Assembly (NCBI RefSeq): GCF_900116205.1
Contig: NZ_FOZS01000009.1
Location: 1-45,500, forward strand
Reading direction: 5' to 3'
Source of the DNA: Halostagnicola kamekurae
GTDB taxonomy: Archaea; Halobacteriota; Halobacteria; Halobacteriales; Natrialbaceae
DNA length: 45,500 nucleotides
Notes under the pieces: generated by a model
The model's database searches: none
What the model was told of the DNA's origin: nothing
What the model saw: the letters and a program-made list of their open reading frames with translations, nothing else
Translations under genes and position numbers: made by a program
In this document: positions 23,352 through 40,791 of the stretch, in pieces
Layout: every line of letters begins with the position of its first letter
How positions within the stretch are numbered: the stretch's first letter is position 1

Positions 23352-23454
23352 ACGTCACACACCGTTTGCTCGCGAATTAACGTTTCTGTTCTCTAGAACA
23401 TGATTTCGGAACCACAGCTCCGGCGGTCGTCCCGTATCGATCGCGGTCCGCAGT

Positions 23455-24738: not shown

Positions 24739-24808
24739 TCTTTCTCAATACTAGCGGGGGTACCTACTTAACGATAGTCAATGAAATACTTGGGCTACGT
24801 ACGTTCGC

Positions 24809-26191: not shown

Positions 26192-26342
26192 ACGTCACCC
26201 CAGGTGAAACAGATATTAATAACTTGTCCACATTATCCATGCAGGCCATCTACAGATACTGATTACAAAACGCCGAATGAATGACAGAGATCTGTCTTTA
26301 TGTGGTGAGAGAGTAGGCCCGCCATCGTGACGTGGGTTGTCA

Positions 26343-26402
26343 CATCGAGTGTCGGCATCTCGCATCGAGTCTCAGTTTCCCGCATCGAGTGTCGGCTTAC
26401 TC
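26343..26402. repeat. three tandem 20-bp repeats
   Basis: Three imperfect 20-base units begin CATCGAGT at 26343, 26363 and 26383. Units 1 and 3 both start CATCGAGTGTCGGC; unit 2 reads CATCGAGTCTCAG. They lie about 65 bases after the stop of the leftward semialdehyde dehydrogenase gene and 150 bases before the start of the aminotransferase. Function unknown; a protein-binding array or a replication-slippage product are both possible. Confidence 0.65.
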
Positions 26403-26417
26403 CCCCAACCGTGAGGG

Positions 26418-26433
26418 CGGGGCATCCGCCCCG
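26418..26433 (-). terminator. GC-rich hairpin after the semialdehyde dehydrogenase gene
   Basis: CGGGGC (26418-26423) pairs with GCCCCG (26428-26433) around ATCC. It lies 33 bases beyond the stop of the leftward dehydrogenase gene, so it is a plausible transcript-end hairpin. There is no strong T-run on the leftward side. Confidence 0.35.
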
Positions 26434-26466
26434 TTTCGTCCGTGAAACCGAACACAGCGCGGCGGC

Positions 26467-27849
26467 CTACTCGTCGAGGCCGTCGGCCGGCGACACCCAG
26501 ACCGTCTTTTTGTTCGTGAACTCGCGGATGCCGTCGGCGGCGAGTTCGCGTCCGTACCCGGAGTTTTTGATACCGCCGAACGGGAGTTTCGGGTGTGACT
26601 GGACGAGTTCGTTGACGAAGGCGGCGCCCGCCTCGAGTTCGTGGGCGACGCGCTCGCCGCGCTCTAAGTCTGTCGTCCAGACGCTCGCGCCGAGCCCGAA
26701 TTCGGTGTCGTTGGCGAGCGCGATCGCTTCGTCCTCGTCCTCGACGACGAAGAGGCTCGCCACCGGGCCGAACAGTTCGTCGCATCCTGCGGGGCTGTCG
26801 GCCGGGACGTCTTCGAGCACCGTGGGTTCGAAGAAGTACCCCTCCCTGTTGATCCGTTCGCCCCCGGTCAGGGCGGTCGCTCCGGCGTCGAGACTCTCTG
26901 TGACCTGTGTCTCGAGCGTATCGAGGAGGTCGGCCCGGGCGATGGGACCGACGTCCGTGTCGGGGTCCGTCGGGTCGCCGACGGTGAGCGACTCCATCTC
27001 ACGGACGAAGCCGTCGCGGAACTCCTCGTAGACATCCTCGACGACGATGAAGCGCTTGGCCGCGATGCAGGCCTGGCCGTTGTTGTTGACCCGAGCCTGG
27101 GCGCCGACCTCACACGCACGCTCGAGCGGCGCGTCGTCGAGGACGACGAAGGGGTCGCTTCCGCCGAGTTCGAGGACGGTCGGTTTGAGGTTCGCACCGG
27201 TGGTCTCCGCGACGGCCCGTCCCGCTCGGACGCTTCCCGTCAGCGTCGCAGCCGCCACGCGGTCGTCCGCGATGACGTCGTGGAGGCTGTCATCGTCCAC
27301 GAGAATCGTCGTAAACGCGCCATCGGGGAACCCGGCGTCCGCGAGAACGCGTTCGATGGTCGTCGCACAGCCGGTGACGTTCCGTGCGTGGCTGAGCAAG
27401 ACCGTGTTTCCGGCGGCGAGCGTCGGTGCCGCGACGCGCAGGACCTGCCAGAACGGGTAGTTCCACGGCATCACCGCCAGGAGCGGGCCCAGCGGTTCGT
27501 AGGAAACCTTCGTCTTCGCCCGCGGGTGGACGCCGATGCGCTCGTCCTGCAGGAACTGGGCGGCGTGTTCGGCGTAGAACTCGCACACCCACGAGCACTT
27601 TTCTATCTCGGCGCGCGCCTGTTCGATCGGTTTCCCCATCTCGCGAGTCATCAGGGCGGCGTAGTCGTCCTCGTTCTCGCACAAGACATCGGCGATACCG
27701 CCGACGAGCGCCTGGCGTTCGGTTATCGGTCGTTCGCTCCAGGATTCGAAGCGGTCGGCCGACCGCTGTACGAAACGCTCGAGCGCCTCGTCGTCGTGTT
27801 CGTCGTACGTTTCGATCGGTTCGTCCGTCGTCGGATTGATAGTCTGCAT
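26467..27849 (-). CDS. NAD(P)-dependent semialdehyde dehydrogenase with altered cofactor-site residue
   Basis: From ATG 27849 (MQTINPTTDEPIETY) the protein has 460 residues, the length of short haloarchaeal and cyanobacterial-type succinate-semialdehyde dehydrogenases; ATG 27867 would add six. The catalytic cysteine is in NNNGQACIAAKRF and the general-base Glu in VLELGGSDPF; the oxyanion Asn is in MPWNYPFWQV. The family oxidises succinate semialdehyde or related aldehydes to acids. One oddity: the cofactor-binding lysine normally found in the L-L-K-H-A/L-K-P-A motif is Ser153 here (TVLLSHARNVTG), an AGC codon. That lysine contacts the NAD(P) ribose or phosphate in this family, so activity or cofactor choice may be changed. 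The gene follows RidA by 27 bases and probably shares its transcript. It would complete the route from amine to acid. Confidence 0.8.
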   Translation of the reverse strand: MQTINPTTDEPIETYDEHDDEALERFVQRSADRFESWSERPITERQALVGGIADVLCENEDDYAALMTREMGKPIEQARAEIEKCSWVCEFYAEHAAQFLQDERIGVHPRAKTKVSYEPLGPLLAVMPWNYPFWQVLRVAAPTLAAGNTVLLSHARNVTGCATTIERVLADAGFPDGAFTTILVDDDSLHDVIADDRVAAATLTGSVRAGRAVAETTGANLKPTVLELGGSDPFVVLDDAPLERACEVGAQARVNNNGQACIAAKRFIVVEDVYEEFRDGFVREMESLTVGDPTDPDTDVGPIARADLLDTLETQVTESLDAGATALTGGERINREGYFFEPTVLEDVPADSPAGCDELFGPVASLFVVEDEDEAIALANDTEFGLGASVWTTDLERGERVAHELEAGAAFVNELVQSHPKLPFGGIKNSGYGRELAADGIREFTNKKTVWVSPADGLDE

Positions 27850-27876
27850 AGTGTTGATGAGTGCCAACCGCTCCTG

Positions 27877-28263
27877 TTATTCGACCTTGGCTATGGCGTC
27901 GATCTCGACGCTGACGTCCCCGGGAAGTCGCGCGGCCTCGAGACAGACGCGGGCCGGCGGTTCGTCGCCGAAATGATTCGCGTAGGCCTCGTTGACCGCG
28001 TCGTAGTCGTCCATGTCGTCGAGATACACCGTTACCTTCACCACGTCCTCGAGCGAGCCTCCGCCTTCCGCCAGCACCGCCGAAAGGTTGGCTATGACCC
28101 GGTCGGTCTGGTCCTCGATATCGCCGTCGACGTCCGCCATCGTCTCCGGGTCCACGGGACCGAATCCGGAGACGAACAGGAAGCCGTCGACCAGGATGCC
28201 CTGGGAGTACGGGTTGTCAGTGTTCGGTGCGTCTTCGGTCGTGACCGCCGTTCGCTGGGCCAT
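27877..28263 (-). CDS. ridA: RidA-family enamine/imine deaminase
   Basis: A 128-residue RidA/YjgF protein, a small trimer in the cytoplasm that hydrolyses reactive 2-aminoacrylate-type enamines/imines released by PLP enzymes. Family features: NPYSQGILVDGFLFVSGFGP at residues 17-36, the linking segment VVKVTVYLDDMDDYDAVNEAYANHF and the conserved arginine that binds the substrate carboxylate in PARVCLEAARLPGDVSVEIDAIA. The start ATG 28263 is well placed. It is immediately upstream of the semialdehyde dehydrogenase (27 bases) on the same strand, so it is likely the first gene of that unit. The threonine ammonia-lyase and two aminotransferases in the cluster produce the kind of intermediate RidA clears, which gives it a clear role here. 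The sequence ATTATGTGTAC on its coding strand (28321-28331) recurs before the aminotransferase at 20528. Confidence 0.9.
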   Translation of the reverse strand: MAQRTAVTTEDAPNTDNPYSQGILVDGFLFVSGFGPVDPETMADVDGDIEDQTDRVIANLSAVLAEGGGSLEDVVKVTVYLDDMDDYDAVNEAYANHFGDEPPARVCLEAARLPGDVSVEIDAIAKVE

Positions 28264-28627
28264 AAATGGGTTCGAGTGAATTCACGGACAGCAATGTAAT
28301 AAACGTTATTAGACTTTTACGTACACATAATCCGTTTTCGAAGTGCGAGGGAGAGGGAAACCGAGTCGATCACTGTGGATCGGCTGGACCAACCGCCGTT
28401 CCTGATGAGTCGCGGTGTCGAGAGTTCAGTCGGTGATACCCACGGCGACGGAGGGTTTCGCTCGTCGTCGAGGTCTCGCATGGGATTCGTTCGACGGCCC
28501 GCTCGAGCACACGCTCGGAGAACTAGTCGCTGCGCCTGTGTGAGTACCCTACCGCCTTGCACGAGAGGCTCTCTATGACACCTTCATATAGGTCAAAGCT
28601 TTTCACGGTTGCTATTGGCAATTTCCT
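28264..28627. promoter_or_regulatory. divergent intergenic region between ridA and the gamma-glutamyltransferase gene
   Basis: No gene is visible in 364 bases. It must hold the promoters of the leftward RidA gene and the rightward gamma-glutamyltransferase gene. GTACACATAAT at 28321-28331 lies 58-68 bases before the RidA start; AT-rich GTAATAAACGTTATTAGAC lies at 28296-28314. AACTAG at 28521-28526 is 102-107 bases before the gamma-glutamyltransferase start and matches the motif found in both fructan-enzyme promoters, possibly by chance. Confidence 0.35.
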
Positions 28628-30550
28628 ATGGGACAAGACAGTCCTGAAGCAGATTCGAGCGATTCGGCGGACGAATCCACGGAACGCGTTCGGACGACGA
28701 AGCGGACGTTCCTCCAGGGGACCGGCGCCACACTGGGAGCCGGCATGGTTCCGGTCGGAGCCAGTAGCGCGTTCGAGCGATCGAACGTAGCGTCGCCATC
28801 CAACGCCGTCGCAGAAGCCGCCGACGGAATGGTCTCGAGCGTCCATCCGCAGGCGACGGAAGCCGGCGTGGAGGTCCTCGAGAACGGAGGGAACGCCATC
28901 GATACGGCGGTTGCCGTCCAGTTCGCGCTCAACGTCGTTCAACCCCACTCGTCGGGGATCGGTGGCGGCGGGTTCACGCTCGTCTACAGCGCCGCGGAGG
29001 ACGAGATTACCGCCATCGACAATCGGGAGCGAGCACCCCTCGGCGCACAACCCGACATGTTTCTGGACAATCAAGGCGAGGAGGTGCCGTTCTTCGACCG
29101 CCACACGAACGGCAAGGCGGTCGGCGTCCCCGGGACGCTGAAGGCCGCCGACGTGGCCGTCAAGCGGTTCGGACGAACGCCGCTCGACGAACTACTCCAG
29201 CCGGCCATCGAGTTGGCCGCACCGGGCGGACGAACGGTTACCGTCGACGAGTTCCTGGCGGGTTCGATCGCGGACAACGTCGACGATGGAGCGCTCACCC
29301 CGACCGCTCGAGAAGTGTTCGCTCCGGGAGGCGACCCCCTCGAGGCGGGCGACGAACTCGTTCAGTCGGACCTCGCCGATACCCTCCGCACCATCCGCGA
29401 CGACGGCATCGGCTCGTTTTACAAGGGAGAGATCGCGGAGGATATCGCCGAGACGGTTCAGGGTGCGGCACGCTCCCGCAAGACGGGCGGGAGCATGACC
29501 GTCGACGACCTCGGCCGCTATAACGTCGCCATCACCAGGCCCACCTACGAGACCTACGACGGTGACGCACACGAGATCACCGTCCGAACGATGCGTTCGC
29601 CGACCTCCGGCGGCTACGTCATCGCACAGATTCTCGCCCTCCTCGAGTCGTTCGATCTCGCGCAGTACGATCGGCGGTCGTTCGACGTGTACCACCGGCT
29701 GATCGAGGCGTTCCAGTTGGCGTTCGCCGACCGCAACGAGTACCTCGGCGACGAGGAGTTCGTCGACATCCCGTGGCAGGGACTGCTCGACGACGAGTAC
29801 GTCGACGCTCGCCGGCGGATCATCGACCCGGAAACGGCGACGTCCGCGACTCGCGAGCCCGGTGATCCCTTCGCCCATCAACCCGGCGGACAGTACTACA
29901 CGAGCCCGAGAGACATCGAGCAGGCCAAACACGACGGCAACGCCTCGGGCGCACGGAACGGGAAAGGCAACGAGCCCCGCACGAACAGTGCCGTGGCCCA
30001 CCCCGGGCAGACGACGCATTTTACGACGGCCGACGCCGAGGGGAACGTCGTCTCCTGGACCAGCACCATCGAACAGTTGTTCGGATCTGGAATCATGGTT
30101 CCCGGTCGGGGCTTCATGCTGAACAACGAGCTCACGGACTTCGACGCAACCCCCGGCGGACCGAACGAGGTGCAGCCGGAAAAGCGCCCGCTGAGCAGCA
30201 CGAGTCCGACGATCGTCACGCGCGACGGTGACCCCTTCCTGACGGTCGGCTCCCCCGGCGGCTGGTCGATCATCCACACCGTCTCCCAGATCCTGCTCAA
30301 CGTCGCCGAGTTCGGCATGGACATCGACGACGCTATCGCGGAACCTCGCGTCTACTCCGCGACCGGGACCTGGGTAGATGCCGAAAACGGCGTCCCCGAC
30401 GACGCCGTTGACGAACTGAACGCCGCCGGTCACGACGTCTCTACCGTCGATTCCATCGGCAACGCCCAATCCATCCTCGTCAAAGAAGACGGCGGCTACG
30501 TCGGTGTCGCTGACCACCGGAGGAACGGTTCAGCCGGGTCGCCGTCGTGA
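28628..30550 (+). CDS. ggt: gamma-glutamyltransferase, Tat-exported
   Basis: A 640-residue Ntn-hydrolase of the gamma-glutamyltranspeptidase family, which cleaves gamma-glutamyl bonds (glutathione, gamma-glutamylated amines or peptides, poly-gamma-glutamate) and can transfer the glutamyl group. The N-terminus TTKRTFLQGTGATLGAGMV is a Tat-like signal with Lys-Arg instead of Arg-Arg, so export outside the cell is likely. The Arg that binds the glutamate carboxylate is in IDNRERAPLG (about residue 133). The self-cleaving nucleophile is Thr462 in GQTTHFTTADAEGN, matching Thr391 of E. coli; a Pro/Asn/Gly-rich loop of about 30 residues precedes it. SSTSPTIV and LTVGSPGGWS complete the small subunit. 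It stands downstream of the amine-oxidation cluster and divergent from RidA, and would release the amino compounds imported by the BCCT transporter (inference). Confidence 0.9.
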   Translation: MGQDSPEADSSDSADESTERVRTTKRTFLQGTGATLGAGMVPVGASSAFERSNVASPSNAVAEAADGMVSSVHPQATEAGVEVLENGGNAIDTAVAVQFALNVVQPHSSGIGGGGFTLVYSAAEDEITAIDNRERAPLGAQPDMFLDNQGEEVPFFDRHTNGKAVGVPGTLKAADVAVKRFGRTPLDELLQPAIELAAPGGRTVTVDEFLAGSIADNVDDGALTPTAREVFAPGGDPLEAGDELVQSDLADTLRTIRDDGIGSFYKGEIAEDIAETVQGAARSRKTGGSMTVDDLGRYNVAITRPTYETYDGDAHEITVRTMRSPTSGGYVIAQILALLESFDLAQYDRRSFDVYHRLIEAFQLAFADRNEYLGDEEFVDIPWQGLLDDEYVDARRRIIDPETATSATREPGDPFAHQPGGQYYTSPRDIEQAKHDGNASGARNGKGNEPRTNSAVAHPGQTTHFTTADAEGNVVSWTSTIEQLFGSGIMVPGRGFMLNNELTDFDATPGGPNEVQPEKRPLSSTSPTIVTRDGDPFLTVGSPGGWSIIHTVSQILLNVAEFGMDIDDAIAEPRVYSATGTWVDAENGVPDDAVDELNAAGHDVSTVDSIGNAQSILVKEDGGYVGVADHRRNGSAGSPS

Positions 30551-31002
30551 TGGACACGACGATCTAATACTGAAACACGACCTGTCCAAACGAGAAGGAT
30601 TTTTCGGCGGTATGTTCGAATCTCGACGGAACGGTTGTTCAGAGACGAGGATGTCGCTCATAGGTGTCTCTACAAGGCGAGGCAAGAACAGGGAGCGCGG
30701 ATGATACGAAGTAAAATCGACGGGTCCGGGAACGTCTCGTCAACGACTGACTGGGTGTATCAAGAGACGGTCGGTGGGCTACCTGTCTAAACCGAACATG
30801 TCGGAAGCGATGGGATTCCATTTTTCCAGTGAGGACTTCGGGGCGGTTGAAAAGAGCGAAATCCTAACTTTGAATGCCATCGGTACCATCCAGTCGTCCT
30901 GTTTACGTATTCGGTCGGGATCGTTCAGTGATATCTGTGCCCGCTCTGTCGTTCGAACATCGGTCACTACGAGGTCGTGAACCGGCTCGGGGTCAAGTGG
31001 TT
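30551..31002. other. 452-base gap without a recognisable gene
   Basis: The stretch separates the gamma-glutamyltransferase stop from the hairpin run. ORFs of about 68-82 codons on both strands around 30774-31027 have no recognisable motif, no clear start and overlap each other, so I do not call a gene. No RNA gene or IS is evident. Confidence 0.35.
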
Positions 31003-31138: not shown

Positions 31139-33514
31139 TCAGGCGTCGGCGGATCGGGCAGGGTCGATTCGCGACAACCGCATCGCGTTCCCGGTGACGC
31201 CGAGGCTCATCCCCATATCGCCGACGACGACCGCCAACGCAACGCTGACTAGACCCAGCGGCACGCCCAGCGCGAGCAAGAATTTCACGCCGAGGCTCGC
31301 CCAGATATTCTGTCGGATCACGCCGTTGGCCGTATGCGACAGGTCGTACAAGTACGGGAGTTTCCCGATGTCGTCGCCCATCAACGCGATGTCTGCCGTC
31401 TCGAGGGCGGTGTCGGTCCCGGCCGCACCCATCGCAATGCCGACCTCCGCGGTGGCGAGCGCGGGCGCGTCATTAATCCCGTCACCGACCATCGCGACCT
31501 CACCGCACTCCGCTTGTAACTCCTCGACTGCGTCGACCTTCTCGTCCGGTAGGAGGTCGGCGCGGTATTCGTCGACGCCGGCCTGCTCGGCGATGGCACG
31601 AGCGGTGCCCTCGTTGTCACCGGTCAGCATCACTACTCGCTCCACACCAAGCTCTTGGAGCCGCTCGACGGCCCGCCTCGAGGCTGGGCGTACCTCGTCC
31701 GCGATGGCAATTGCACCCAGCAGCTCCGACTTCGTACCGACGATAACGACCGTCTTGCCCTCCCCCTCCAGCGTCGCGAGCGCGTCCTCGGCGAACGCCC
31801 CGTCGTCACCCTCGACCGCGTCTGGTGCTGGAACACCGCCGTCGGTCGCTGAGCGGGCCCGGGTGAGGTCGAAGCCCAGTTCCTCGAAGAGTGCGGGTTT
31901 TCCCGCATAGTACGTCTCGCCGTCGATATCGCCACGGATTCCCTTGCCGGTCAGGCTCTCGAAGGCGTCCGGCTCGGGTGAGTTACCCACGCCCGTATCA
32001 TCGGCGCGGGCGAGAATCGCTGTTGCGATGGGGTGTTCGCTCCGTCGCTCCAGCCCGGCCGCGTACCGGAGCAGCGTCGCCTCGTCGGTGTCGCTGACTG
32101 GGATGACGTCTGTGACGGCGAGTTCGCCCTTCGTGAGTGTGCCCGTCTTGTCGAGGGCGACGGCGTCGACCTCGCCCATCGCCTCGAGGTAGTTACCGCC
32201 CTTGATGAGGACGCCGTTTTTCGCAGCGCTAGTGATGCCCGACACCACCGAGACGGGCGTGGAGATGACGAACGCACATGGACACGCGATCACCAGCAGC
32301 GTGAGTCCGCGGATGAACCACGTCTGCCAGTCGGCAGCGAAGGTGAAGCCGTATCCAGCTACGTCCACCGAGACGGGAGTGGTGATTACCAGCGGCGGAA
32401 GGACCGCTGTAAGGATCGCCAGAACGACTACGACAGGCGTGTAGTACCCCGAAAACCGATCGACGAACTGCTCGGTCTCGGTCTTTTTCGCCTGTGCGCC
32501 CTGCACCATCTCGATGATGCGCGAGAGAGTGGAGTCACCCGCCGTCGACGTGGCCTCTATCTCGAGGTACCCCTCCTCGGTGATCGCGCCGGCGTACACC
32601 TCGTCACCGGAGGTCTTGTCGACGGGAACGCTCTCGCCGGTGATCGGCGACTGGTCGACCGCACTCTCGCCGTCGATGACCGCCCCGTCGAGCGGGATCT
32701 TGTCACCCGGCCGGACGACCACCGTTTCACCGACGGCTACGTCCTCGGCCGGTATCGTCACCTCCTCGCCGTCGCGCAGGACGGTGGCCTCGTCGGGCGA
32801 CAGTTCCATTAGCTCTCGCAGGGAATCCCGCGCCCTGTCCATCGCGTAGTCCTCGAGCAGCTCGGCGATGCTGAACAGAACGGCCAGCGTGGCGGCTTCG
32901 ACGAAGTAGCCGATACCGGTCGCGGCGATGATCGCCGTCCCCATCAGCAGATCGATGTCGAGACTCCGATTTTTGGCTGAATAATAGCCACCACGGACGA
33001 CGGGAATACCGCTGACAGCGACGGCACCGAGGAACAAGACATCTGCGACGCGAAGCGGGTAGTCGAGGCCGCTCGCTATCGTGACGTTCTGGCCAGTGAG
33101 AAGGAATTCGAAGACAAGACCGAGGGTGACGAACGCCGCACCGAGCCACGTCTTCTTCGCGCGGGCGCTCGTCCAGACCTCTGAAGGTGGTGCGATGTCG
33201 ACGCCGTCACTCGCCTCGATTCGCTCGTCGCCCTCAGTGCCGGGGCCGCCAACAACCTCGTAGCCGGCGCCTTCAATCGCCTTGACTACGTCGGCTTCGC
33301 TGGTGCGTTTGGGGTCGTACGTGATGTTGGCCGTGCCGGTGGTCGGCTGGAGCGTGGCGTCGACGACGCCGTCGACGCGCTGGAGGCTCTTGTCGACTTT
33401 CTGCGCACACGACGGACAGTCCATCTCGGGGACGGTAAGGCGAGCGGACAGCTCCCGTTGTTGCCCGCCGCCGTTCGGCGGTCCCGCCGTATCCCCATCC
33501 AGATTCTCTGTCAT
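31139..33514 (-). CDS. Zn/Cd/Pb-type P1B heavy-metal ATPase
   Basis: From ATG 33514 (MTENLDGDTAGPP) the pump has 791 residues; the ATG at 33565 adds 17. One N-terminal heavy-metal-associated domain has the CxxC pair at residues 33 and 36 (EMDCPSCAQKV). Then come about eight membrane helices with the actuator TGES (292-295), CPC in the sixth helix (411-413), the phosphorylated Asp455 in DKTGTL, the HP dipeptide at 494-495 and the hinge GDGINDAPAL. The last helices hold N-x7-K (NIWASLGVK) and D-x-G (VVGDMG), which with CPC are the P1B-2 pattern for Zn2+, Cd2+ and Pb2+ export. It pumps metal ions out of the cytoplasm using ATP. It lies directly after its probable regulator on the same strand, with a 16-bp palindrome between them, so a metal-induced operon is likely. 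Confidence 0.93.
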   Translation of the reverse strand: MTENLDGDTAGPPNGGGQQRELSARLTVPEMDCPSCAQKVDKSLQRVDGVVDATLQPTTGTANITYDPKRTSEADVVKAIEGAGYEVVGGPGTEGDERIEASDGVDIAPPSEVWTSARAKKTWLGAAFVTLGLVFEFLLTGQNVTIASGLDYPLRVADVLFLGAVAVSGIPVVRGGYYSAKNRSLDIDLLMGTAIIAATGIGYFVEAATLAVLFSIAELLEDYAMDRARDSLRELMELSPDEATVLRDGEEVTIPAEDVAVGETVVVRPGDKIPLDGAVIDGESAVDQSPITGESVPVDKTSGDEVYAGAITEEGYLEIEATSTAGDSTLSRIIEMVQGAQAKKTETEQFVDRFSGYYTPVVVVLAILTAVLPPLVITTPVSVDVAGYGFTFAADWQTWFIRGLTLLVIACPCAFVISTPVSVVSGITSAAKNGVLIKGGNYLEAMGEVDAVALDKTGTLTKGELAVTDVIPVSDTDEATLLRYAAGLERRSEHPIATAILARADDTGVGNSPEPDAFESLTGKGIRGDIDGETYYAGKPALFEELGFDLTRARSATDGGVPAPDAVEGDDGAFAEDALATLEGEGKTVVIVGTKSELLGAIAIADEVRPASRRAVERLQELGVERVVMLTGDNEGTARAIAEQAGVDEYRADLLPDEKVDAVEELQAECGEVAMVGDGINDAPALATAEVGIAMGAAGTDTALETADIALMGDDIGKLPYLYDLSHTANGVIRQNIWASLGVKFLLALGVPLGLVSVALAVVVGDMGMSLGVTGNAMRLSRIDPARSADA

Positions 33515-33550
33515 TACGTCACGGTAGGAACGGGAGTTCGATATGTCTTT

Positions 33551-33566
33551 GTTGGAATATTCCAAC
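33551..33566. promoter_or_regulatory. 16-bp perfect palindrome between metal regulator and ATPase
   Basis: GTTGGAATATTCCAAC is fully self-complementary. It lies 37 bases upstream of the ATPase start codon (33514) and 5 bases past the stop of the upstream regulator gene (33572). The position in the ATPase promoter region fits an operator for a metal-responsive regulator, or an upstream activator site. The regulator encoded beside it is the natural candidate. Confidence 0.6.
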
Positions 33567-33571
33567 CAGGG

Positions 33572-34321
33572 TCAGTGGGATGTCAGTCGTTCTTCCGCAA
33601 CCCGCTCGCCGGCGACGTATTGCTTCGCTAAATATTCCTCCGCCCGCCGGAGTCGGTAGGTGAGTGTTGAGCGCGGCACGTCGAGATGGCCGGCGAGCCC
33701 ACCGACGTCGGTCTCGCGGGGAGATTCATAGTAGCCGTGTTCGACGGCGGCTTGGAGAGCAGCCTCCTGTGTCGGGGACAATCCACTTGGTGTCCCGTCG
33801 TTCTCTCGAGTTACTGTCGTCGTGTCCGCAGTGCGGAGCATCTCCATCTGAGCACAGTCCCCGACGGCGGTCTCCAGAGCGTCGAAGAACGCCGCCACGT
33901 CGCCGTCCCCGGAGTGGATTAGTCGCCACGTGTAGTGACGCCCCTCGTGGCGGGTTTCGAACAGCACGCCGTCGCCGAGATGGTCTCGTGCGATGTGGGG
34001 AACTGAGGCGCAGGTAGGAGTACGCTCCCAGTCGGAATAGAGGACGAGCCTGTTGTCCGCCCGATCCAGGACTCGAGTGGTCTGTGTAGCGCCGCAGTTC
34101 TCAGTGGCGAGACAGTCAGCGTAGTAGTCGCCGTCGAGAAAAGCGTCCTCGATGGCGTCGAGCGCCTCGGGAGTTCCGGTGGCATGGTCGACCCGCCAGA
34201 GACGCTCGGCAGTAGCGTGGAGCGAGAGCGAACGGACGCGAGCGTTAGGGTGGTCGGCAAGGGCGTCTGCCACCTCGTTGCAACCCGGTTCGTATTCCAG
34301 GGCGAAGACGAGTTCACGCAT
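33572..34321 (-). CDS. HTH-10 (bacterioopsin-activator type) transcription regulator with cysteine-rich sensor half
   Basis: A 249-residue protein. The C-terminal part from about residue 183 is the haloarchaeal HTH-10 domain: LSPTQEAALQAAVEHGYYESPRE followed by LAGHLDVPRSTLTYRLRRAEEYL. The N-terminal part has cysteines in GCNEV, DCLATENCGATQ, CASVPH and DCAQ and several His, a pattern able to bind a thiophilic metal. The order regulator-ATPase on one strand with a palindrome between them suggests it controls the pump. HTH-10 proteins are usually activators, so activation by bound metal is the simplest model (inference). Whether the cysteines really bind metal cannot be seen from sequence. The start ATG 34321 is clear, with no better upstream alternative. 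Confidence 0.8.
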   Translation of the reverse strand: MRELVFALEYEPGCNEVADALADHPNARVRSLSLHATAERLWRVDHATGTPEALDAIEDAFLDGDYYADCLATENCGATQTTRVLDRADNRLVLYSDWERTPTCASVPHIARDHLGDGVLFETRHEGRHYTWRLIHSGDGDVAAFFDALETAVGDCAQMEMLRTADTTTVTRENDGTPSGLSPTQEAALQAAVEHGYYESPRETDVGGLAGHLDVPRSTLTYRLRRAEEYLAKQYVAGERVAEERLTSH

Positions 34322-34388
34322 ACTCCTCTGTACGGCCTACTACCATTTGACACCCTCCTTCGTGTTTCTCAGAAGTGACGGCGTGTAT

Positions 34389-34408
34389 CCACGGTCTGAA
34401 GACCGTGG
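34389..34408. other. perfect 8-bp hairpin in the regulator/GH68 gap
   Basis: CCACGGTC (34389-34396) and GACCGTGG (34401-34408) pair perfectly around TGAA. It lies 68 bases upstream of the regulator start and 180 bases before the GH68 start. Similar hairpins occur near the ends of haloarchaeal IS200/IS605-type elements, so it may be a relic of one, but no other IS200/IS605 part is present. Confidence 0.3.
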
Positions 34409-34472
34409 TATTGTGTCTGTTCAGCGTATGAATTACTGGAAATATTCTTTCTACCACCTCGCCAACCGATCG

Positions 34473-34496
34473 AACTAGATATTTTTCTAACTAGAT
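34473..34496 (+). promoter_or_regulatory. direct repeat AACTAGAT x2 and GH68 promoter
   Basis: AACTAGAT occurs at 34473-34480 and 34489-34496, 16 bases apart, which places both copies on one face of the helix about 1.5 turns apart. They lie 95-118 bases upstream of the GH68 start (34591). The TATA-like TTATTATATC at 34558-34567 is about 25-33 bases before ATG, so the transcript is probably leaderless. AACTAG also occurs twice in the promoter of the GH32 gene. Confidence 0.45.
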
Positions 34497-34590
34497 GAAG
34501 TCGATATACATTTGATATATACTGTTCGTACCTTATATATAATCAGCCTAGAAAATCTTTATTATATCAAGAGTAAATATTTCAAGCGCG

Positions 34591-35946
34591 ATGGAAGATC
34601 AGGATCAGACAGAGGTGAGCAGACGTACTGTCCTTAGAACGACCGGCGCGATCGGCGCAGCCGGTCTCGGGCTGTCGATCGGGACCGGCACCGGGGCCGC
34701 CGTCGAGACGGGTGAGCCAAGCGCGTGGACACGCGAGCACGCGAACAACATCGAACTCACCGACGACCTGACGGCGCCGGTGATCGACGAGAATCCCGAC
34801 GTAATCTCGGACGACTACTGGGTCTGGGACACGTGGCCGCTTCGGTACCGCGACGGTTCGATCGCGAAGATTAACGGCTGGCAGATCGTCTTCTCGCTCA
34901 CAGCGTCGAAGGACCTCGTGCCGGGCGCTCGCCACAATGAGGCGACGATTCGTTACTTCTACTCCCGGAACGGCCATGACTGGACTGAGGGCGGGACGGC
35001 CTTCGAGAACCCACTCGGTCATCATCAGTGGGCCGGCTCCGCGATGTACGACCACGAGCAAGACCAGATCTACCACTTCTACACCGCGACCAGTCCCGAG
35101 CCGGAGTTCCGCCAGCGACTCGCGCTCGGCAAAGGCGCGTCGCTCGAGACCGGTCCGCACGGCGTCGACCTGGTCGGAGACCAAGAGCACGTCATCATGG
35201 CCGAGGCCGACGGCGAACTCTACCAGACGCTAGAGCAGTCCCGGGACCAGGGCATCGTCTATGCGTTCCGCGACCCGTGGTACTTCCGGCACCCCGAGAC
35301 GGGCGAAGACATGGTCGTCTTCGAGGGCAACACGCCCACAGACGGCGAGGACCCGAGCGATCCGCGGAGTTACAACGGGAACGTCGGGGTAGCGCGGGCG
35401 ACGAACGACGACCTCACCGAGTGGGAGTTGCTCCCACCGAACCTGGAGGCCATCGAGGTCAATCAGCAACTCGAGCGCCCCCACTACGTCTTCCAGGACG
35501 GGAAGTGGTATCTGTTCGTGCTGAGCCACGAGTTTACGTTCGCACCCGGCCTCTCGGGGCCTGATGCCCTGTACGGGTTCGTCGCCGACTCGCTATACGG
35601 CGACTACGAGCCGCTCAATGAGAGCGGACTGGTCCTCGCGAACCCCGAGGCGGCGCCGTTCCAGGGCTACTCTTGGTTAGCGATGCCTCAGGGTAACGAC
35701 GTCCTCGTCGAGAGCTTCGAGAACTTCCGCGGCCTCGACGACACCTCTCGGGGCGAGATCGGTCTCGACGAAGTCGGATTCTTGCCAGCCGAGGAACAGA
35801 AGGAGCTGTTCGGTGGTACCCTCGCCCCGAGTCTGAAAGTCCAACTCGACGGCACCGAGACGCGGGTCGTCGCCGAACTCAACGATGGCCATTTCATCCC
35901 GTCGGGCGGCAGTCCGAACGGAAACGGCAACGGACGCGGTCGGTAG
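34591..35946 (+). CDS. GH68 levansucrase/invertase-type enzyme, Tat-exported
   Basis: A 451-residue family-68 glycoside hydrolase. GH68 enzymes split sucrose and transfer the fructosyl unit to water, sugars or a growing levan/inulin chain. The Tat signal is VSRRTVLRTTGAIGAAGLGL, so it acts outside the cell. The three catalytic acids fit the five-bladed propeller pattern: nucleophile Asp80 in YWVWDTWPLR, transition-state Asp228 in FRDPW and acid/base Glu295 in LERPHYV (corresponding to Asp86, Asp247 and Glu342 of B. subtilis SacB). HQWAGSAMYD and EFTFAPGLSGPD are also conserved in the family. The C-terminus SPNGNGNGRGR is a short low-complexity tail. It converges on a GH32 gene with a 92-base gap. 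Whether it makes polymer or only hydrolyses cannot be told. The start MEDQD resembles that of the protein at 10082. Confidence 0.9.
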   Translation: MEDQDQTEVSRRTVLRTTGAIGAAGLGLSIGTGTGAAVETGEPSAWTREHANNIELTDDLTAPVIDENPDVISDDYWVWDTWPLRYRDGSIAKINGWQIVFSLTASKDLVPGARHNEATIRYFYSRNGHDWTEGGTAFENPLGHHQWAGSAMYDHEQDQIYHFYTATSPEPEFRQRLALGKGASLETGPHGVDLVGDQEHVIMAEADGELYQTLEQSRDQGIVYAFRDPWYFRHPETGEDMVVFEGNTPTDGEDPSDPRSYNGNVGVARATNDDLTEWELLPPNLEAIEVNQQLERPHYVFQDGKWYLFVLSHEFTFAPGLSGPDALYGFVADSLYGDYEPLNESGLVLANPEAAPFQGYSWLAMPQGNDVLVESFENFRGLDDTSRGEIGLDEVGFLPAEEQKELFGGTLAPSLKVQLDGTETRVVAELNDGHFIPSGGSPNGNGNGRGR

Positions 35947-36038
35947 GCGACACTACCAGTGGCCACGAAGACGATAAGAAGGAGAGTAATGCCGGATAGG
36001 CGACTCAGTCAACGACACTTGACGATCCCTAAGGGACG

Positions 36039-37721
36039 TCACCTCAGGTGAGACCCCTCGTGAAGCTCGATTCCCAATGGCTGTGAGGCGAGGTCGTAGA
36101 CGACCATGTCTTCAACTCTCGCGGCGCCTTTATCCGCGAAAAGGGACATTCCAGTACTGTCCCAGTCCGGGAATATTTGATTCGTCATCACCCTCCGTCC
36201 ACCGTTGCCGAATATTTCGACCGACGATCGGTCGACGAGGACGCGAAGCTGAATCGTTCCGTCCTCTCGTAGTTCGAGCGGCATCGTCGTTGTGTCTTCT
36301 TGACCTGGATCGTAGAATCCGTCTGCCGGGCCATCGACTGACGATTCCAATCGATCGAACTCCAACTGGTTTTTATCCGTGTAGTAGGTGATCACGCTTT
36401 GATCATTCTCACCCTCTCGAACTCGAAGTCCGACCGTATCGGCGCTATGCGGGTCGATCGTCATGATTATCTCAAGCGACCGTCCGTTCGCATTCGTGTC
36501 CTCGAGCGGATCTCTACACGACGTGACCATCTCCTTGCTGACATCGGCGAGTTTGTCCTGCCGGAGGTCAACGAGTTTCTCGGCCGGATACTCTCGCAGT
36601 CTGATGTCACTCTCTTCTCCTTCGAGGGCAACGTTACGTGGAACCGACATGATACCGCGCCATCCGGTTTCGGGGATGAAGTCCATGTAGGGCCAGTGAG
36701 CCGCCCACCCGATCTGGATTCGACAGTCATTGGGCTCGTTGTCCCATGACATAGCAGCGAAGTAATCGTAGCCATAATCCGCGAGTTCGCGATCCTCCAT
36801 CGTGAACTCGTGTCCATCAAACTCACCTATGAGGTGATCGACGTGAGGGTCACCTTGGACGGAGACCGTCAGTACCCATTTGGTTTCGTCAGTACCCTCG
36901 ACGGGTAGTTCGAACAAGTCCGGACATTCCCAGAGATCCACAGTATCATTGTAGACACCGTTGTTTGTCTCGATCTCAGCGACTACGTCCTCATACTCGT
37001 CGATCGTGAACGTGCTTTCGTACGTCCAGTCGATGTGGTCCTCGGAACTGTAAAATTCGATACCGGCGGGTCGTTCGTCCCCGTTATCGTCGCCGTCTGC
37101 AGCGCGGGAAACGACCATGATCCAGTGTTCGTTTGGTTCGTACCAGAAGACGTTTGGATCACGGAATTCTGGGTCGTTGGTATCGACAACTGGATTGTCG
37201 GCGTACGCCGTAACCGTCTTGCCGTTATCGGTACTATACGCGATACGTTGATCCTGGATCGACTCGTTGAGGTGGGCACCTGTATACGACAAGATCAGCG
37301 CATCCTCACCGAATCCAGCCGTGTTCTGGGTATCAACGGTGCCACCACCCGAGAATTTTCCAATGTTGTTCTCTTCATCGAATGGGAGTTTGACACCGTG
37401 GTACGTCCATTCGAAAAGGTCCTCGCTGGTCGCATGTCCCCACTCGATATCCTCCCAGAAGGGGTTGTAGGGGTTGTACTGGAAAAACAGATGGTAAACA
37501 CCTTCGTGGTAGACTAACCCGTTCGGGTCATTGATCCAGCCTTGTGGTGGTGCGAAGTGAAAGCCCGGTCGCCAGAGATCCGATTCCGACGCTTCTATCT
37601 GTTCGACGTGATCTGTGGCTGAGACACTCAGCCCGGAACCACCGAGTACCGTCGTCGTAAACAGGCCGGTCCCTGTCACTCGGAGTGCATTCCGACGGCT
37701 GAGCCGCAATAATTCGTTCAT
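36039..37721 (-). CDS. GH32 levanase/inulinase/invertase-type enzyme, Tat-exported
   Basis: A family-32 glycoside hydrolase, 560 residues from ATG 37721. This start is preferred over 37790 because MNELLRLSRRNALRVTGTG places the Tat motif (SRRNAL) at the N-terminus. GH32 enzymes hydrolyse terminal or internal beta-fructosyl bonds of sucrose, levan or inulin. Catalytic residues: nucleophile Asp65 in GWINDPNG, Asp188 in FRDPN, acid/base Glu265 in WECPDL. The FQYNPYNPFW and FSGGG blocks are typical. The C-terminal beta-sandwich contains VLVDRSSVEIFGNGG and RVMTNQIFPD. Together with the facing GH68 gene this gives a make-and-break fructan pair outside the cell. AACTAG occurs at 37761-37766 and 37790-37795, 40-75 bases upstream of the start. 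Whether it is exo- or endo-acting is not visible. Confidence 0.9.
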   Translation of the reverse strand: MNELLRLSRRNALRVTGTGLFTTTVLGGSGLSVSATDHVEQIEASESDLWRPGFHFAPPQGWINDPNGLVYHEGVYHLFFQYNPYNPFWEDIEWGHATSEDLFEWTYHGVKLPFDEENNIGKFSGGGTVDTQNTAGFGEDALILSYTGAHLNESIQDQRIAYSTDNGKTVTAYADNPVVDTNDPEFRDPNVFWYEPNEHWIMVVSRAADGDDNGDERPAGIEFYSSEDHIDWTYESTFTIDEYEDVVAEIETNNGVYNDTVDLWECPDLFELPVEGTDETKWVLTVSVQGDPHVDHLIGEFDGHEFTMEDRELADYGYDYFAAMSWDNEPNDCRIQIGWAAHWPYMDFIPETGWRGIMSVPRNVALEGEESDIRLREYPAEKLVDLRQDKLADVSKEMVTSCRDPLEDTNANGRSLEIIMTIDPHSADTVGLRVREGENDQSVITYYTDKNQLEFDRLESSVDGPADGFYDPGQEDTTTMPLELREDGTIQLRVLVDRSSVEIFGNGGRRVMTNQIFPDWDSTGMSLFADKGAARVEDMVVYDLASQPLGIELHEGSHLR

Positions 37722-38637
37722 CGACTCTTCACTTTCCTGTAGATTGTTATCTTGTACCACAACTAGGTTGAGTACGAGAATTATTTTCAAACTAGTGGTT
37801 TTTATCGTTTCTGATCGATATATACATCATAATACTGTACTTGTTCAATAGAAGATTCAAGGATAGTGAAAATATTCTCCCTGCATTTCCCGTAGAGTAT
37901 TTCGAATTCCAGTTCATCGCGGGAAGGAATGTTCGAGCTCAAAATTTGAGCGGAACGCTAAGGCCAAAACGGGAGATAGCCTTATTCATTTTCACATGCC
38001 ACTTAGCAAGTAATATACTCATCTATATATTGTCTTATTAATCGTGCTGTCACTGTCTAGTTTTACACCACCTCAACGGGAGTTGGCCCGTTTAATGCTT
38101 GATTCAGCCGATGTGATTATAGTGATGAGCGTGTCATACGATAATATCCATATTTTTAATTTAACTAGTTAGACTACCTTCAGCTGTGGTGATACCTAAC
38201 TCACTCACCGGTACCGAATCTCTTCTTCAGTAGCAACCGCTGGCCGGAACTCGTCACTGGCTGCCTCGCAGCAATCGTCTGAGTCATTGATCGACGACGC
38301 GATGACCAGTTACTAATTGCTCAGTAACCCTGCGGTCCCCATCCGGGTCAGCGAGCAGGATCGAATGTGTGACGATATCAAGTGCTCGCCCCACAATCTG
38401 GTAGAATTGATTAAGGATACAGCCTGACAATCAGGCTGTGATACAGACCTCTGGAGACTGGCGAGGAATCAACCGTCTATCTTAGCGAACTGATAGTCTG
38501 GCACCCGGAGACGCAAACAGAATTCTCAAAAAAGCTGGCTGGATTGTATAGACGATTCTCTTGAAAAGCCTGCTGCAGTCTTCTAATACGAAATTTGACT
38601 CATTTCCCCCTGGTATGGACTACGGAAGATAAATCGA
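37722..38637. other. 916-base AT-rich gap with GH32 promoter and no clear gene
   Basis: The left 80 bases are the GH32 promoter with two AACTAG copies. TAACTAGTTA at 38162-38171 is a palindrome containing the same core. A perfect 9-bp hairpin, ACAGCCTGA (38419-38427), loop CAA, TCAGGCTGT (38431-38439), lies in the right half. A leftward frame at about 38285-38405 contains ILLADPDGDRRVTEQLV and might be a relic of a protein, but it is only about 47 codons. I see no tRNA or known repeat. Confidence 0.35.
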
Positions 38638-38970
38638 GTGGTCGTTCAAGTCTGTCGATTTGAGTTCATAGGAGTCGGTGTCACTCGAGGTGAAGCAGAC
38701 CGCCGGAGCTATGTTGATCTCTGGGTGCTCACTCGGTCTGGGCGTGCTGTGAACCAACGCGAGGCGAACGCTGTAGCTCGCGAGCTCGAAGAGCAGGTCT
38801 TTGACAGGGACAGATATGCCTACGATATTGACGTTGAGTCGGTCAATTCGACCCCCGATTACACAACAGCCATCCGAGAAATCGTCGTTTCGGGTATCCC
38901 ACACTACACCACCGATGGCTTTGAGAGCGTTGAGGAGTACCTGTTGGAAGTGAGCAGCGATAACGCGTAG
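38638..38970 (+). CDS. small hypothetical protein
   Basis: A 110-residue acidic frame starting with GTG 38638. The frame is open back to 38599, so the start is not fixed and the gene may be the tail of something longer. It contains SYVDLWVLTRSGRAVNQREANAVARELEEQVF and DYTTAIREIVVSGIPHYTTDGFES, with a haloarchaeal amino-acid balance, and looks like a real coding sequence. No domain is recognised, and there is no membrane segment or signal peptide. It stands alone between the fructan module and the first IS630-like remnant. It may be a leftover of an older gene rather than a working one. Confidence 0.4.
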   Translation: MVVQVCRFEFIGVGVTRGEADRRSYVDLWVLTRSGRAVNQREANAVARELEEQVFDRDRYAYDIDVESVNSTPDYTTAIREIVVSGIPHYTTDGFESVEEYLLEVSSDNA

Positions 38971-39055
38971 TCGGTACGGAGCGTACCGAGCGCCTGTTTC
39001 AAAGGTACTCTAGTAACCGTTAGAACTTTTCACTCATCACTTGTTACAAGAGATA

Positions 39056-39584
39056 GTGAATCATCTCGACGAGATCTCCGTCGAGGAATTGCATGACGCT
39101 CTCGACAATGTGGACCGAAAGAAGTCGAGACAACGGCTCTTACGGCCGTCGCATACAAGAACGGTGTGACACAAACTGAGCTATCCGAGTGGTACGACGT
39201 TCAGCGGCGGACGATCTACAGCTGGCTCAATCGACTCGTCGGTGTCGAGTCGCTTGAGCAAGCCGTTTCTGACAAGAAACGAACTGATAGGAAGCGAAAA
39301 CTCACAGAACTACAGCAAGAAGAATTCGAAGATAATTCGATCGTCGTATTGGATGGAGCGCCGTATTTTCAGGCGTCGACTGTCACGGGCCGCCAGGTCC
39401 GTGACGACCTTGCCTTCGTGACGTTACCATCGTATTCGCCGGATCTGAACGCTGTCGAGGAATGCTGGAGACAGCTTCAAGCAGCTCTCAGCAACCGCTT
39501 CTTGACTCGCTCGACGAGGTTACGACAGCAATCGACACTGCTCTCGACCAACTCCCTATCCCTAACATGAGCAATTACTTCTAG
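39056..39584 (+). pseudogene. IS630-like transposase remnant with internal deletion
   Basis: The start reads MNHLDEISVEELHDALDNVD (GTG 39056), a frameshift at about 39140 follows, then AYKNGVTQTELSEWYDVQRR gives the N-terminal helix-turn-helix of IS630-group transposases. After LTELQQEEFEDN the sequence jumps to VVLDGAPYFQAS, so the middle third (including the first two catalytic acids) is gone. The C-terminal DDE block YSPDLNAVEECWRQLQAALSN follows, then another frameshift. It ends at TAG 39582-39584. The right end resembles that of the second copy at 41280-41641. It lies directly upstream of a broken enolase-superfamily gene and probably caused its truncation. Confidence 0.75.
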
Positions 39585-39592
39585 GTTCTACT

Positions 39593-39706
39593 ATGGAAGA
39601 ACTCCCAGAGTTTGAGGACAGCCATGTCATCCTCCCGGATCGGCCCGGCCACGGCTACCGAGTCGATTCAGACGCACGCGAGGAGTACGCCGTCTCATTC
39701 AACTGA
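39593..39706 (+). pseudogene. C-terminal stub of an enolase-superfamily dehydratase
   Basis: Thirty-seven residues from 39593 read MEELPEFEDSHVILPDRPGHG and YRVDSDAREEYAVSFN, the usual C-terminal tail of mandelate-racemase/enolase-superfamily sugar-acid dehydratases (gly-hydrophobic-x-x-pro-x-x-pro-gly, then val-asp-x-asp). Everything before it is missing: the IS630-like remnant ends 8 bases upstream. In the pentose pathway of Haloferax the xylonate dehydratase XacD belongs to this family, and the FAH and aldehyde dehydrogenase genes nearby would be XacE- and XacF-like. So this is probably the remains of the xacD-like gene. It may be a different dehydratase. Confidence 0.5.
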
Positions 39707-39819
39707 TCGTGACTTCACCGGTGCTACAACTGGAGTCCGCTGCGGGTACGGTCCTACTCCCACCCAATATGTCTCGATATTCGATATCCTTTTTAGCCAC
39801 ACAGGAAAAATTGGTAGTG

Positions 39820-40791
39820 ATGACACACACCATACTAGTGACTGACTTTGATTTCTCCGATCTATCGATTGAACGCGATCAATTACCAGATTCCGATGTA
39901 GAGATCGTTGAAGGGCAGGCACGGAGTGAAGCGGACTTAGTCGAGACCGTTAAAGAGGTCAAGCCTGACGCGCTGTTGAACCAATATGCACCAGTCACGC
40001 GGGCCATCTTTGAGGCCCATTCCGGAATTCAAGCGGTTGGAAGATACGGTATCGGCGTCGATACTGTCGATCTCGATGCGGCGACTGAGCATGGAGTCGT
40101 TACGCTCAATGTTCCTGATTATTGCCTCGATGAAGTTCCAACTCACACTATGGCCCTCATTCTTTCGGTAAAGCGGAACACAGCACAGTATACCGCCGAA
40201 ATCAAATCCGGGACATGGAACTGGACGAATGGGCAACCAATCTACCGTCTCCGCGGCCAGACTCTCGGTCTTGCCGGATTCGGAAAACTTCCTAAGAACT
40301 TGGTCGACAAGGCTAAACCATTCGGACTCGAGCCAATCGCCTATGATCCGTATGTGACCGAAGAGGAAATGGCCGAGCACAACGTCGAAAAGGTCTCATT
40401 CGACGAACTGCTCGAGCGCTCTGATATTGTGTCGGTTCATACGCCGCTGACCGACGAAACGCGGGAAATGTTTGACACTGAAGCGTTCACTGCGATGGAT
40501 GAGGACGCGATCATTGTGAATACCTCCCGCGGTTCGACAATTGATGTCGATGCACTCCACGAAGCGCTTGTCAATAGCGAGCTTCGGGGCGCCGGCATCG
40601 ACGTAATGCCCGATGAACCGCCGGAACACCATCCGCTCTTCGAACTTGATGAGACAGTGATGACACCCCATGTTGCTTGGTATTCAGAGGAATCAATCGG
40701 CGATATGCGAGGCACCGTTGCGGAAGACGTCTACCGTGTGCTTGAGGGTGAGACACCGATAAACCCAGTCAACGAAGAGGTCCTCAATTGA
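39820..40791 (+). CDS. D-2-hydroxyacid dehydrogenase, C-terminal-binding-protein-like
   Basis: From ATG 39820 (MTHTILVTDFDFSDLSIER) the enzyme has 323 residues; earlier ATGs belong to the flanking stub region. The family reduces 2-keto acids or oxidises D-2-hydroxy acids with NAD(P). The Rossmann loop is LGLAGFGKLPKNLV (GxGxxx, with Pro in place of the usual Gly/Ala). The active-site arginine is in NTSRGSTIDVDAL, the glutamate in IDVMPDEPPEHHP and the histidine in MTPHVAWYSEES. It is not the same enzyme as the one at 14989-15960. The neighbouring sugar-acid genes suggest it works on a pentose- or hexose-derived acid (inference). It is read rightward from a possible ribosome site GGTAGTGA just before the start. 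It is intact despite decayed neighbours. Confidence 0.82.
   Translation: MTHTILVTDFDFSDLSIERDQLPDSDVEIVEGQARSEADLVETVKEVKPDALLNQYAPVTRAIFEAHSGIQAVGRYGIGVDTVDLDAATEHGVVTLNVPDYCLDEVPTHTMALILSVKRNTAQYTAEIKSGTWNWTNGQPIYRLRGQTLGLAGFGKLPKNLVDKAKPFGLEPIAYDPYVTEEEMAEHNVEKVSFDELLERSDIVSVHTPLTDETREMFDTEAFTAMDEDAIIVNTSRGSTIDVDALHEALVNSELRGAGIDVMPDEPPEHHPLFELDETVMTPHVAWYSEESIGDMRGTVAEDVYRVLEGETPINPVNEEVLN

What the first reader, a model, noticed from the sequence alone, without database searches (positions are those of the whole stretch)
34591..37721. Facing GH68 and GH32 exported enzymes: a fructan make-and-break pair
Both have Tat signals and complete catalytic triads. Archaea seldom carry both families side by side. 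A haloarchaeon could produce levan as an exopolymer and recover fructose from it.
Basis: partly seen in the sequence, partly recalled or inferred. Interest (0 to 1): 0.55.

Follow-up and report, generated by a model that had tools for sequence, protein, structure and literature searches.

The report
Exported fructan-making and fructan-cutting enzyme pair
A salt-loving archaeon carries two apparently secreted sugar enzymes side by side, one that may build fructose chains from table sugar and one that can cut them; such neighbours are common in this group, but the usual ones lack an export signal and belong to other branches, so this is an uncommon exported version of a known pair.

Summary
In detail: GH68 (34591-35946 +) and GH32 (36039-37721 -) are intact, tail to tail, 92 bp apart, with complete catalytic motifs and twin-arginine N-termini. 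The claimed rarity is wrong: GH68 occurs in 154 and GH32 in 160 of 391 Halobacteria-class genomes, and 103 of 151 GH68 places checked have a GH32 facing them within 3 kb. What is unusual is the kind of pair. The common GH68 has no signal (83 of 84 frames), an HXHT motif (82 of 84) and a GH32 partner of about 700 aa. The window's genes belong to other lineages of both families: a Tat/HXFT GH68 clade (13 of 391 genomes) and a short GH32 lineage. Among 19 genomes with such a GH68, a facing GH32 was found in 2, this one and Halegenticoccus soli. The genome has a fructose PTS operon, so a path sucrose -> fructan -> fructose is complete on paper. 'Levan' is not supported: the haloarchaeal GH68 whose product I read about makes inulin, and the altered motif leaves the linkage open. 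A variant of a known system; function untested.

The parts
34591..35946 (+). GH68 sucrase/fructosyltransferase, 451 aa, Tat-type signal, HXFT-type clade
   Evidence: PF02435 4.2e-87; best PDB sequence match 7bj4, 392 bits; Tat pattern; clade support 100/99; motif H313-E-F315-T316
36039..37721 (-). GH32 beta-fructosidase, short type, 560 aa from ATG (583 aa from TTG 37790), Tat-type signal
   Evidence: PF00251 1.1e-75 and PF08244 1.5e-31; model pLDDT 78.5, top fold matches 8i12 (InuAMN8), 3sc7 endo-inulinase, 1y4w exo-inulinase; lineage support 100/99
35947..36038 (.). 92-bp gap between the facing stop codons; no terminator-like site found by the simple bacterial-type scan of 35900-36100
34373..34590 (+). 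GH68 upstream region shared with H. larsenii (block 34373-35945, 94% DNA identity); holds hairpin CCACGGTCTGAAGACCGTGG at 34389 and an AT-rich stretch before the start codon
39008..39583 (+). IS630-type transposase remnant (134-aa ORF 39166-39570), 1.3 kb beyond the GH32 start; similar DNA lies near exported-type GH68 in two other genomes
   Evidence: PF13358 8.8e-15; IS630 model 74.7 bits, below its cut-off of 100; blastn to L251 and L271

Best explanation
The two genes encode an extracellular sucrose/fructan pair. GH68 is exported folded by the Tat pathway, splits sucrose outside the cell and transfers fructose to a growing beta-fructan or fructo-oligosaccharide, releasing glucose. GH32, also exported, trims fructan, oligosaccharides and leftover sucrose to free fructose, which the cell takes up by its PTS as fructose 1-phosphate and feeds to 1-phosphofructokinase. 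Shown by sequence: families, catalytic motifs, export-type N-termini, facing arrangement, PTS operon in the genome. Inferred: export itself, polymer formation, exo-action, co-use by the cell. Not known: linkage (inulin or levan), regulation, cooperation. By lineage it is an uncommon exported variant, made from members of both families other than those of the common signal-less haloarchaeal pair.
For: Family hits; triads; Tat-type N-termini; high acidity, 75 acidic to 28 basic residues in GH68 and 110 to 37 in GH32; GH32 model matches inulinases and fructofuranosidases. Fructose PTS operon in the same genome: DeoR-type regulator, 1-phosphofructokinase (NF041320 over cut-off), fructose EIIC (TIGR01427 over cut-off), fructose EIIA (TIGR00848 over cut-off), HPr, EI. 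In Haloterrigena turkmenica and Natrinema plasmids the same GH68 type lies near an ABC importer with binding protein, GH32 genes and TrmB-type regulators, which fits a sugar-feeding role. A second facing pair of the exported types exists in Halegenticoccus soli (L161). A GH68 from another haloarchaeon, Halomicrobium sp. IBSBa, makes inulin (PMC8066391, sections read; its sequence was not compared here).
Against: Of 19 genomes with exported-type GH68 examined, 2 have a facing GH32, 1 an adjacent tandem one, 2 a GH32 within 1.6 kb in another orientation, and 14 none within 3 kb, so the pairing is not required. H. larsenii (G057) has the 97% GH68 and no GH32 match. G+C differs: 0.637 in the bin 35001-36000 (most of GH68) against 0.544 and 0.497 in the two GH32 bins, and an IS remnant is near, consistent with separate arrival. 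No sugar transporter or sugar regulator was recognised next to the pair. GH68 members can act mainly as hydrolases (general knowledge).
Confidence: 0.5

Rival explanations
1. Sucrose scavenging only: both enzymes serve as extracellular invertases that liberate glucose and fructose; any fructan is a by-product.
For: GH68 includes hydrolases; GH32 structural neighbours include invertases; the PTS takes up free fructose. PMC13260240 Table 2 labels haloarchaeal GH68_2 'sucrose beta-2,1-fructosidase' (passages seen).
Against: A haloarchaeal GH68 with a described product makes inulin (PMC8066391). The residues that the paper lists for acceptor binding, carried over by me by counting offsets and not by aligning that enzyme, are mostly kept: R114, H115, A148, H313, T316, Y360, S361, N378, D393; F315 replaces H.
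Confidence: 0.25
2. Chance neighbours: two mobile genes landed next to each other and do not work as a pair.
For: The GH68 block shared with H. larsenii ends at the stop codon and at 34373, flanks unrelated; G+C differs; IS630-type remnant nearby; 14 of 19 genomes with exported-type GH68 have no GH32 within 3 kb.
Against: A facing pair also exists in Halegenticoccus soli, with a GH32 of the sister sub-lineage, whether by common descent or anew; both enzymes here have export signals and act on linked substrates; facing GH68/GH32 pairs of other lineages are common in the class.
Confidence: 0.2
3. GH32 feeds on fructans made by others while GH68 makes short oligosaccharides or adhesive polymer; the two have separate uses.
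For: Haloarchaea that grow on levan or inulin exist, one of them (Natranaeroarchaeum aerophilus) with both GH32 and GH68 (PMC9726719, passages).
Against: No fructan importer recognised near; side-by-side placement.
Confidence: 0.05

Closest known systems
Haloarchaeal GH68 inulosucrases: HmcIsc of Halomicrobium sp. IBSBa (PMC8066391) and the enzyme in PDB 7bj4 (labelled Levansucrase; that it is the Halalkalicoccus jeotgali enzyme is recalled)
   Same: GH68 by sequence, triad, most acceptor-site residues, acidic make-up
   Different: Window enzyme is 47-53% identical to most canonical frames, has a Tat-type signal, HXFT instead of HXHT, no cysteine, and a 5-residue insertion before D393 that is shared with H. 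larsenii, L070, L071 and H. soli but not with L001. HmcIsc itself was not aligned; its place among the canonical type rests on its HXHT motif
Canonical haloarchaeal tail-to-tail GH68/GH32 pair (e.g. Natronorubrum aibiense plasmid, L253)
   Same: Same families, same facing arrangement
   Different: Canonical GH68 lacks a signal and its GH32 is about 700 aa with an extra N-terminal region of about 250 aa; window proteins fall in other clades
Exported-GH68 locus of Haloterrigena turkmenica pHTUR01 and Natrinema sp. SYSU A 869 plasmid
   Same: GH68 about 86% identical, Tat-type signal
   Different: There it lies near an ABC importer, other GH32 genes and TrmB-type regulators; here only one facing short GH32
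Short haloarchaeal GH32 of Natronococcus sp. AD-5 plasmid (L069) and of G263 (L066)
   Same: 71% and 68% identical, Tat-like N-terminus
   Different: No GH68 beside them in the stretches fetched
GH32 enzyme 8i12 (InuAMN8, labelled exo-inulinase) and other solved GH32
   Same: Fold, triad, C-terminal domain
   Different: 34% identity in the structure alignment; window has about 18 extra residues before the acid/base motif relative to 6 of the 8 haloarchaeal relatives aligned

Membership tests
GH68 | Pfam PF02435 over the curated cut-off | tested here: met
   293.3 bits, cut-off 27
GH68 | Catalytic triad D / RDP / ER | tested here: met
   D80, D228, E295
GH68 | Five-bladed propeller fold | tested here: inconclusive
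   Model from a 2-row alignment failed, pLDDT 30.6; sequence match to 7bj4 covers residues 45-434
Haloarchaeal inulosucrase subgroup (PMC8066391) | HXHT motif | tested here: not met
   HEFT. HXHT in 82 of 84 canonical frames (the others: 1 HXDT, 1 not resolved); HXFT in 10 of 11 exported-type frames by pattern, the 11th reads THEFT by eye
Haloarchaeal inulosucrase subgroup (PMC8066391) | D365 equivalent | tested here: inconclusive
   D393 fits by my offset count, after a 5-residue insertion
Inulosucrase / levansucrase | beta-2,1 or beta-2,6 product | not testable with these tools
   -
GH32 | PF00251 and PF08244 over cut-offs | tested here: met
   255.5 and 110 bits
GH32 | Triad WINDPNG / FRDP / WECP | tested here: met
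   D65, D188, E265
GH32 | Propeller plus beta-sandwich fold | tested here: met
   Model pLDDT 78.5, pTM 0.82; the 50 PDB matches shown are inulinases, fructofuranosidases, invertases, levan fructotransferases and kin by title (their GH32 membership is recalled)
Canonical haloarchaeal GH68/GH32 pair | Facing neighbours | tested here: met
Canonical haloarchaeal GH68/GH32 pair | Members orthologous to the common pair | tested here: not met
   Separate clades in both trees
Canonical haloarchaeal GH68/GH32 pair | No N-terminal signal on GH68 | tested here: not met
   Window has a Tat-type N-terminus; 83 of 84 canonical frames have none
Tat substrates | RR motif plus hydrophobic stretch | tested here: met
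   My own pattern; Pfam TAT model below cut-off for GH68 and not listed for GH32; export itself not tested

The most novel reading that the evidence does not exclude
Haloarchaea hold two separate GH68/GH32 systems: a widespread signal-less pair acting inside the cell (sucrose or fructan metabolism rather than exopolymer) and an uncommon Tat-exported system with a changed acceptor site (HXFT) that makes a different fructan outside. In this genome and in Halegenticoccus soli the exported system has taken up the same tail-to-tail layout with members of other lineages, as a reversible extracellular fructose store.
Probability: 0.3. Interest if true: 0.55.

Novelty: new variant of a known kind. Interest (0 to 1): 0.35.

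Why it matters
If right, the picture of archaeal fructans drawn from the common HXHT type covers only one of two systems. The clean split in these frames between signal-less/HXHT and Tat/HXFT GH68 gives a direct test of where and what fructan haloarchaea make, and warns against calling these genes levansucrases by name alone.

Tried and rejected
Rejected: (1) rarity of the neighbour pair: refuted for Halobacteria; other archaea not searched. (2) Levan as product: no evidence either way; HXFT is not diagnostic because the levansucrase chain 7ehr also shows HKFT in the alignment. (3) A selected, conserved facing layout among exported pairs: 2 facing and 1 adjacent tandem of 19 genomes, too few to say. 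(4) A known structured RNA near the pair: no Rfam match up to E = 1 in 33300-40000. (5) A curated NCBI name: GH68 none, GH32 only below cut-offs.

Led nowhere: genome-contig scan with the single GH32 (nothing); GH68 structure (unusable); a 76-aa frame after the H. larsenii GH68 stop reads like a TnpB end by eye, but Pfam gives only E = 0.0055 below cut-off and NCBIfam nothing, so it is not claimed. Paper searches: nine. Opened: PMC8066391 (outline, sections 3.1, 3.5.4 and 3.6, passages), PMC9726719, PMC3102087 and PMC13260240 (passages). In these I saw no description of an exported HXFT haloarchaeal GH68 clade or of the class-wide facing pair; the rest of the listings were seen as titles and abstract starts only, and most subscription papers are not held.

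Limits of counts: the place lists are cut at about 150 rows, so neighbour counts are lower bounds; distances are between domain edges; the class draw is 391 genomes of a larger group. The sample of 95 GH68 frames comes from stretches that I chose (20 for short GH32 or family members, 80 from the GH68 list, plus H. soli and the window). In one search, 4 of 76 canonical GH32 frames matched my RR-plus-hydrophobic pattern and 26 more held a hydrophobic segment; rechecked, 31 of these 33 segments begin beyond residue 70 of the frame, inside the long N-terminal region, and 2 (L087, L091, without RR) lie within 60 residues of the first ATG/GTG, so a signal is not excluded for those two. Of 10 short-type GH32 frames the script flagged 6; by eye 9 have RR plus a hydrophobic stretch (L066, L077 and L161 added), L068 has none. 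The single canonical GH68 flagged (L096) lies in an over-long 1194-aa frame. Four of 15 window-type GH68 places carry a flagged stop. Trees used subsets: 40 of 106 GH68 rows and 59 of 201 GH32 rows; one GH68 row (L260) is on a very long branch.
Full report
WHAT IS THERE. The window is one whole contig (C9, 45,500 bases) of a 4.1-Mb genome in 16 contigs. Two genes face each other: GH68 at 34591-35946 (+, 451 aa) and GH32 at 36039-37721 (-, 560 aa), 92 bp between stop codons. Pfam assigns both far over cut-off. Catalytic motifs are complete: D80, D228, E295 in GH68 and D65, D188, E265 in GH32. Both begin with a twin-arginine motif followed by a hydrophobic stretch, although the Pfam TAT model is below cut-off for GH68 and not listed for GH32. 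Both are strongly acidic. The GH32 start may lie upstream of the ATG. A GH32 model from 13 aligned rows has pLDDT 78.5 and pTM 0.82; its best solved matches are InuAMN8 (8i12), an endo-inulinase and an exo-inulinase, with fructofuranosidases, invertases and levan fructotransferases close behind. The GH68 model failed, but the sequence matches 7bj4 over residues 45-434.

WHOSE GENOME. The GH68 is 97% identical to one on a Halostagnicola larsenii plasmid. That record's size (573,680) and gene position match contig C2 of G057, which the search tool calls same genus. So the window most likely comes from a Halostagnicola (family Natrialbaceae). Of five genomes of this genus searched, two have GH68; GH32 was found only in the window's genome among the four of them that the GH32 searches covered.

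THE RARITY CLAIM FAILS. In 391 genomes of the class, 154 have GH68 and 160 have GH32. Of 151 GH68 places checked (150 listed plus the window's own), 103 have a GH32 facing them within 3 kb, 83 of them within 1 kb; 34 have no listed GH32 on the contig; 14 have one further off or in another orientation. The facing pair is therefore an ordinary haloarchaeal arrangement.

BUT THIS IS ANOTHER KIND OF PAIR. I extracted 95 GH68 frames from fetched stretches. By best query they fall into 84 canonical, 9 of the window's type and 2 of a third type. A Tat-like N-terminus was found in 1 of 84 canonical frames (an over-long frame), 9 of 9 and 2 of 2. HXHT, which PMC8066391 proposes as a marker of haloarchaeal inulosucrases, is in 82 of 84 canonical frames; the other 11 have HXFT, 10 by pattern and 1 by eye. 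The window-type GH68 forms a clade with support 100/99. The GH32 likewise belongs to a short lineage (12 rows, 100/99), parted by a 100/100 branch from the common GH32 of about 700 aa. The common type groups with an actinomycete row (99/93) and, further out, two Bacteroidota rows; the short lineage groups with the other bacterial rows, among them Bacteroidota and Salinibacter. The tree is rooted at the midpoint only. The window's GH32 is about 30% identical to the common type.

HOW COMMON IS THE EXPORTED KIND. GH68 of the window's type (60% identity or more) occurs at 15 places in 13 of 391 genomes, 4 of the places with a flagged stop; short-type GH32 (43% or more) at 15 places in 14 of 391. 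I then looked at 20 stretches from 19 genomes with exported-type GH68, both types, some from outside the class draw. A GH32 faces it in 2 (the window and Halegenticoccus soli, L161), lies adjacent in tandem in 1 (G265, L077), 1.3 kb downstream on the same strand in 1 (G404, L311) and 1.5 kb away divergently in 1 (G111, L159); in the other 14 none lies within 3 kb. In Haloterrigena turkmenica, Natrinema and Haladaptatus plasmids this GH68 is close to an ABC importer with binding protein and TrmB-type regulators.

IS THE COMMON PAIR CYTOPLASMIC? My scan finds no signal on the common GH68. Independently, Table 2 of PMC13260240 (passages read; localisation by SignalP 6.0) marks GH68_2 as 'Cpl' in 3 of 3 haloarchaeal isolates and all 7 GH32 genes as 'Cpl', against 'Extra (Tat/SPI)' for other families; I read 'Cpl' as cytoplasmic. 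Against this, PMC8066391 (sections read) reports that PRED-TAT predicts a signal for HmcIsc while SignalP 5.0 does not, and that inulin was purified from the growth medium. The question is open.

HOW IT LIKELY WORKS. Outside the cell GH68 splits sucrose, passes fructose to an acceptor and frees glucose; GH32 releases fructose from the product and from sucrose. The genome holds a fructose PTS operon (G000:C1, L277: aldolase of the DeoC/LacD family, DeoR-type regulator, haloarchaeal 1-phosphofructokinase, fructose EIIC, fructose EIIA, HPr, EI; EIIB was not looked for separately). Such operons are known in haloarchaea (PMC3102087, passages). This closes a path from sucrose to glycolysis on paper. 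Polymer formation, linkage and cooperation are inferred. HmcIsc makes inulin, slowly (PMC8066391), so inulin is at least as likely as levan. The same paper models F as able to replace H in Gram-positive enzymes, but a solved enzyme labelled levansucrase (7ehr) also carries HKFT, so the motif does not decide.

HOW THE PAIR AROSE. The GH68 gene with 218 bp upstream is 94% identical to H. larsenii DNA; similarity stops at the stop codon and the flanks are unrelated. G+C falls from 0.637 in the bin that holds most of GH68 to 0.544 and 0.497 in the GH32 bins. An IS630-type remnant lies at 39008-39583; similar DNA lies near the same GH68 type in Natrinema (L251) and G350 (L271). Separate arrival of the two genes is likely; whether they now work together is not shown.

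VERDICT. A real, intact, probably exported pair; ordinary in family and layout, unusual in lineage and export. New variant of a known kind, interest 0.35.

Noticed in passing
window 34389-34408; L061 10670: Hairpin CCACGGTCTGAAGACCGTGG upstream of GH68; H. larsenii has CCACGGCCTGAAGGCCGTGG, a change on both sides of the stem. It resembles a transposon end hairpin (recalled, not tested); no Rfam match.
   Followed up: partly
window 39008-39583; L251 12781-13827; L271 8504-8881: IS630-type remnants near exported-type GH68 in three genomes; the window copy lacks about 450 bp present in L251.
   Followed up: partly
L159 4407-7364; L311 7551-10278: Two exported-type GH68 genes in tandem in G111 and in G404.
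   Followed up: no
G191:C4:123286-126168; G111:C27:126636-129524; G180:C2 around 337350-338741: Very long open frames (1360-1422 aa); two GH32 matches each are listed for G191 and G111. They lie 1.6 kb (G111) to about 20 kb from exported-type GH68.
   Followed up: no
canonical GH32, e.g. L080 7141-9297: N-terminal region of about 250 aa with only a sub-cut-off DUF4960 hit; role unknown.
   Followed up: no
L264 7992-9404; L263 7968-9389: Short-type GH32 without a signal lies near ABC importer genes in Halomontanus rarus and Haloterrigena salifodinae; perhaps export is lost where oligosaccharide uptake is present (inference).
   Followed up: partly
window 14000-31000: Higher-G+C block with BCCT transporter, an M20-type peptidase, a PALP enzyme, an aldehyde dehydrogenase and a gamma-glutamyltranspeptidase, not visibly related to the pair.
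   Followed up: no
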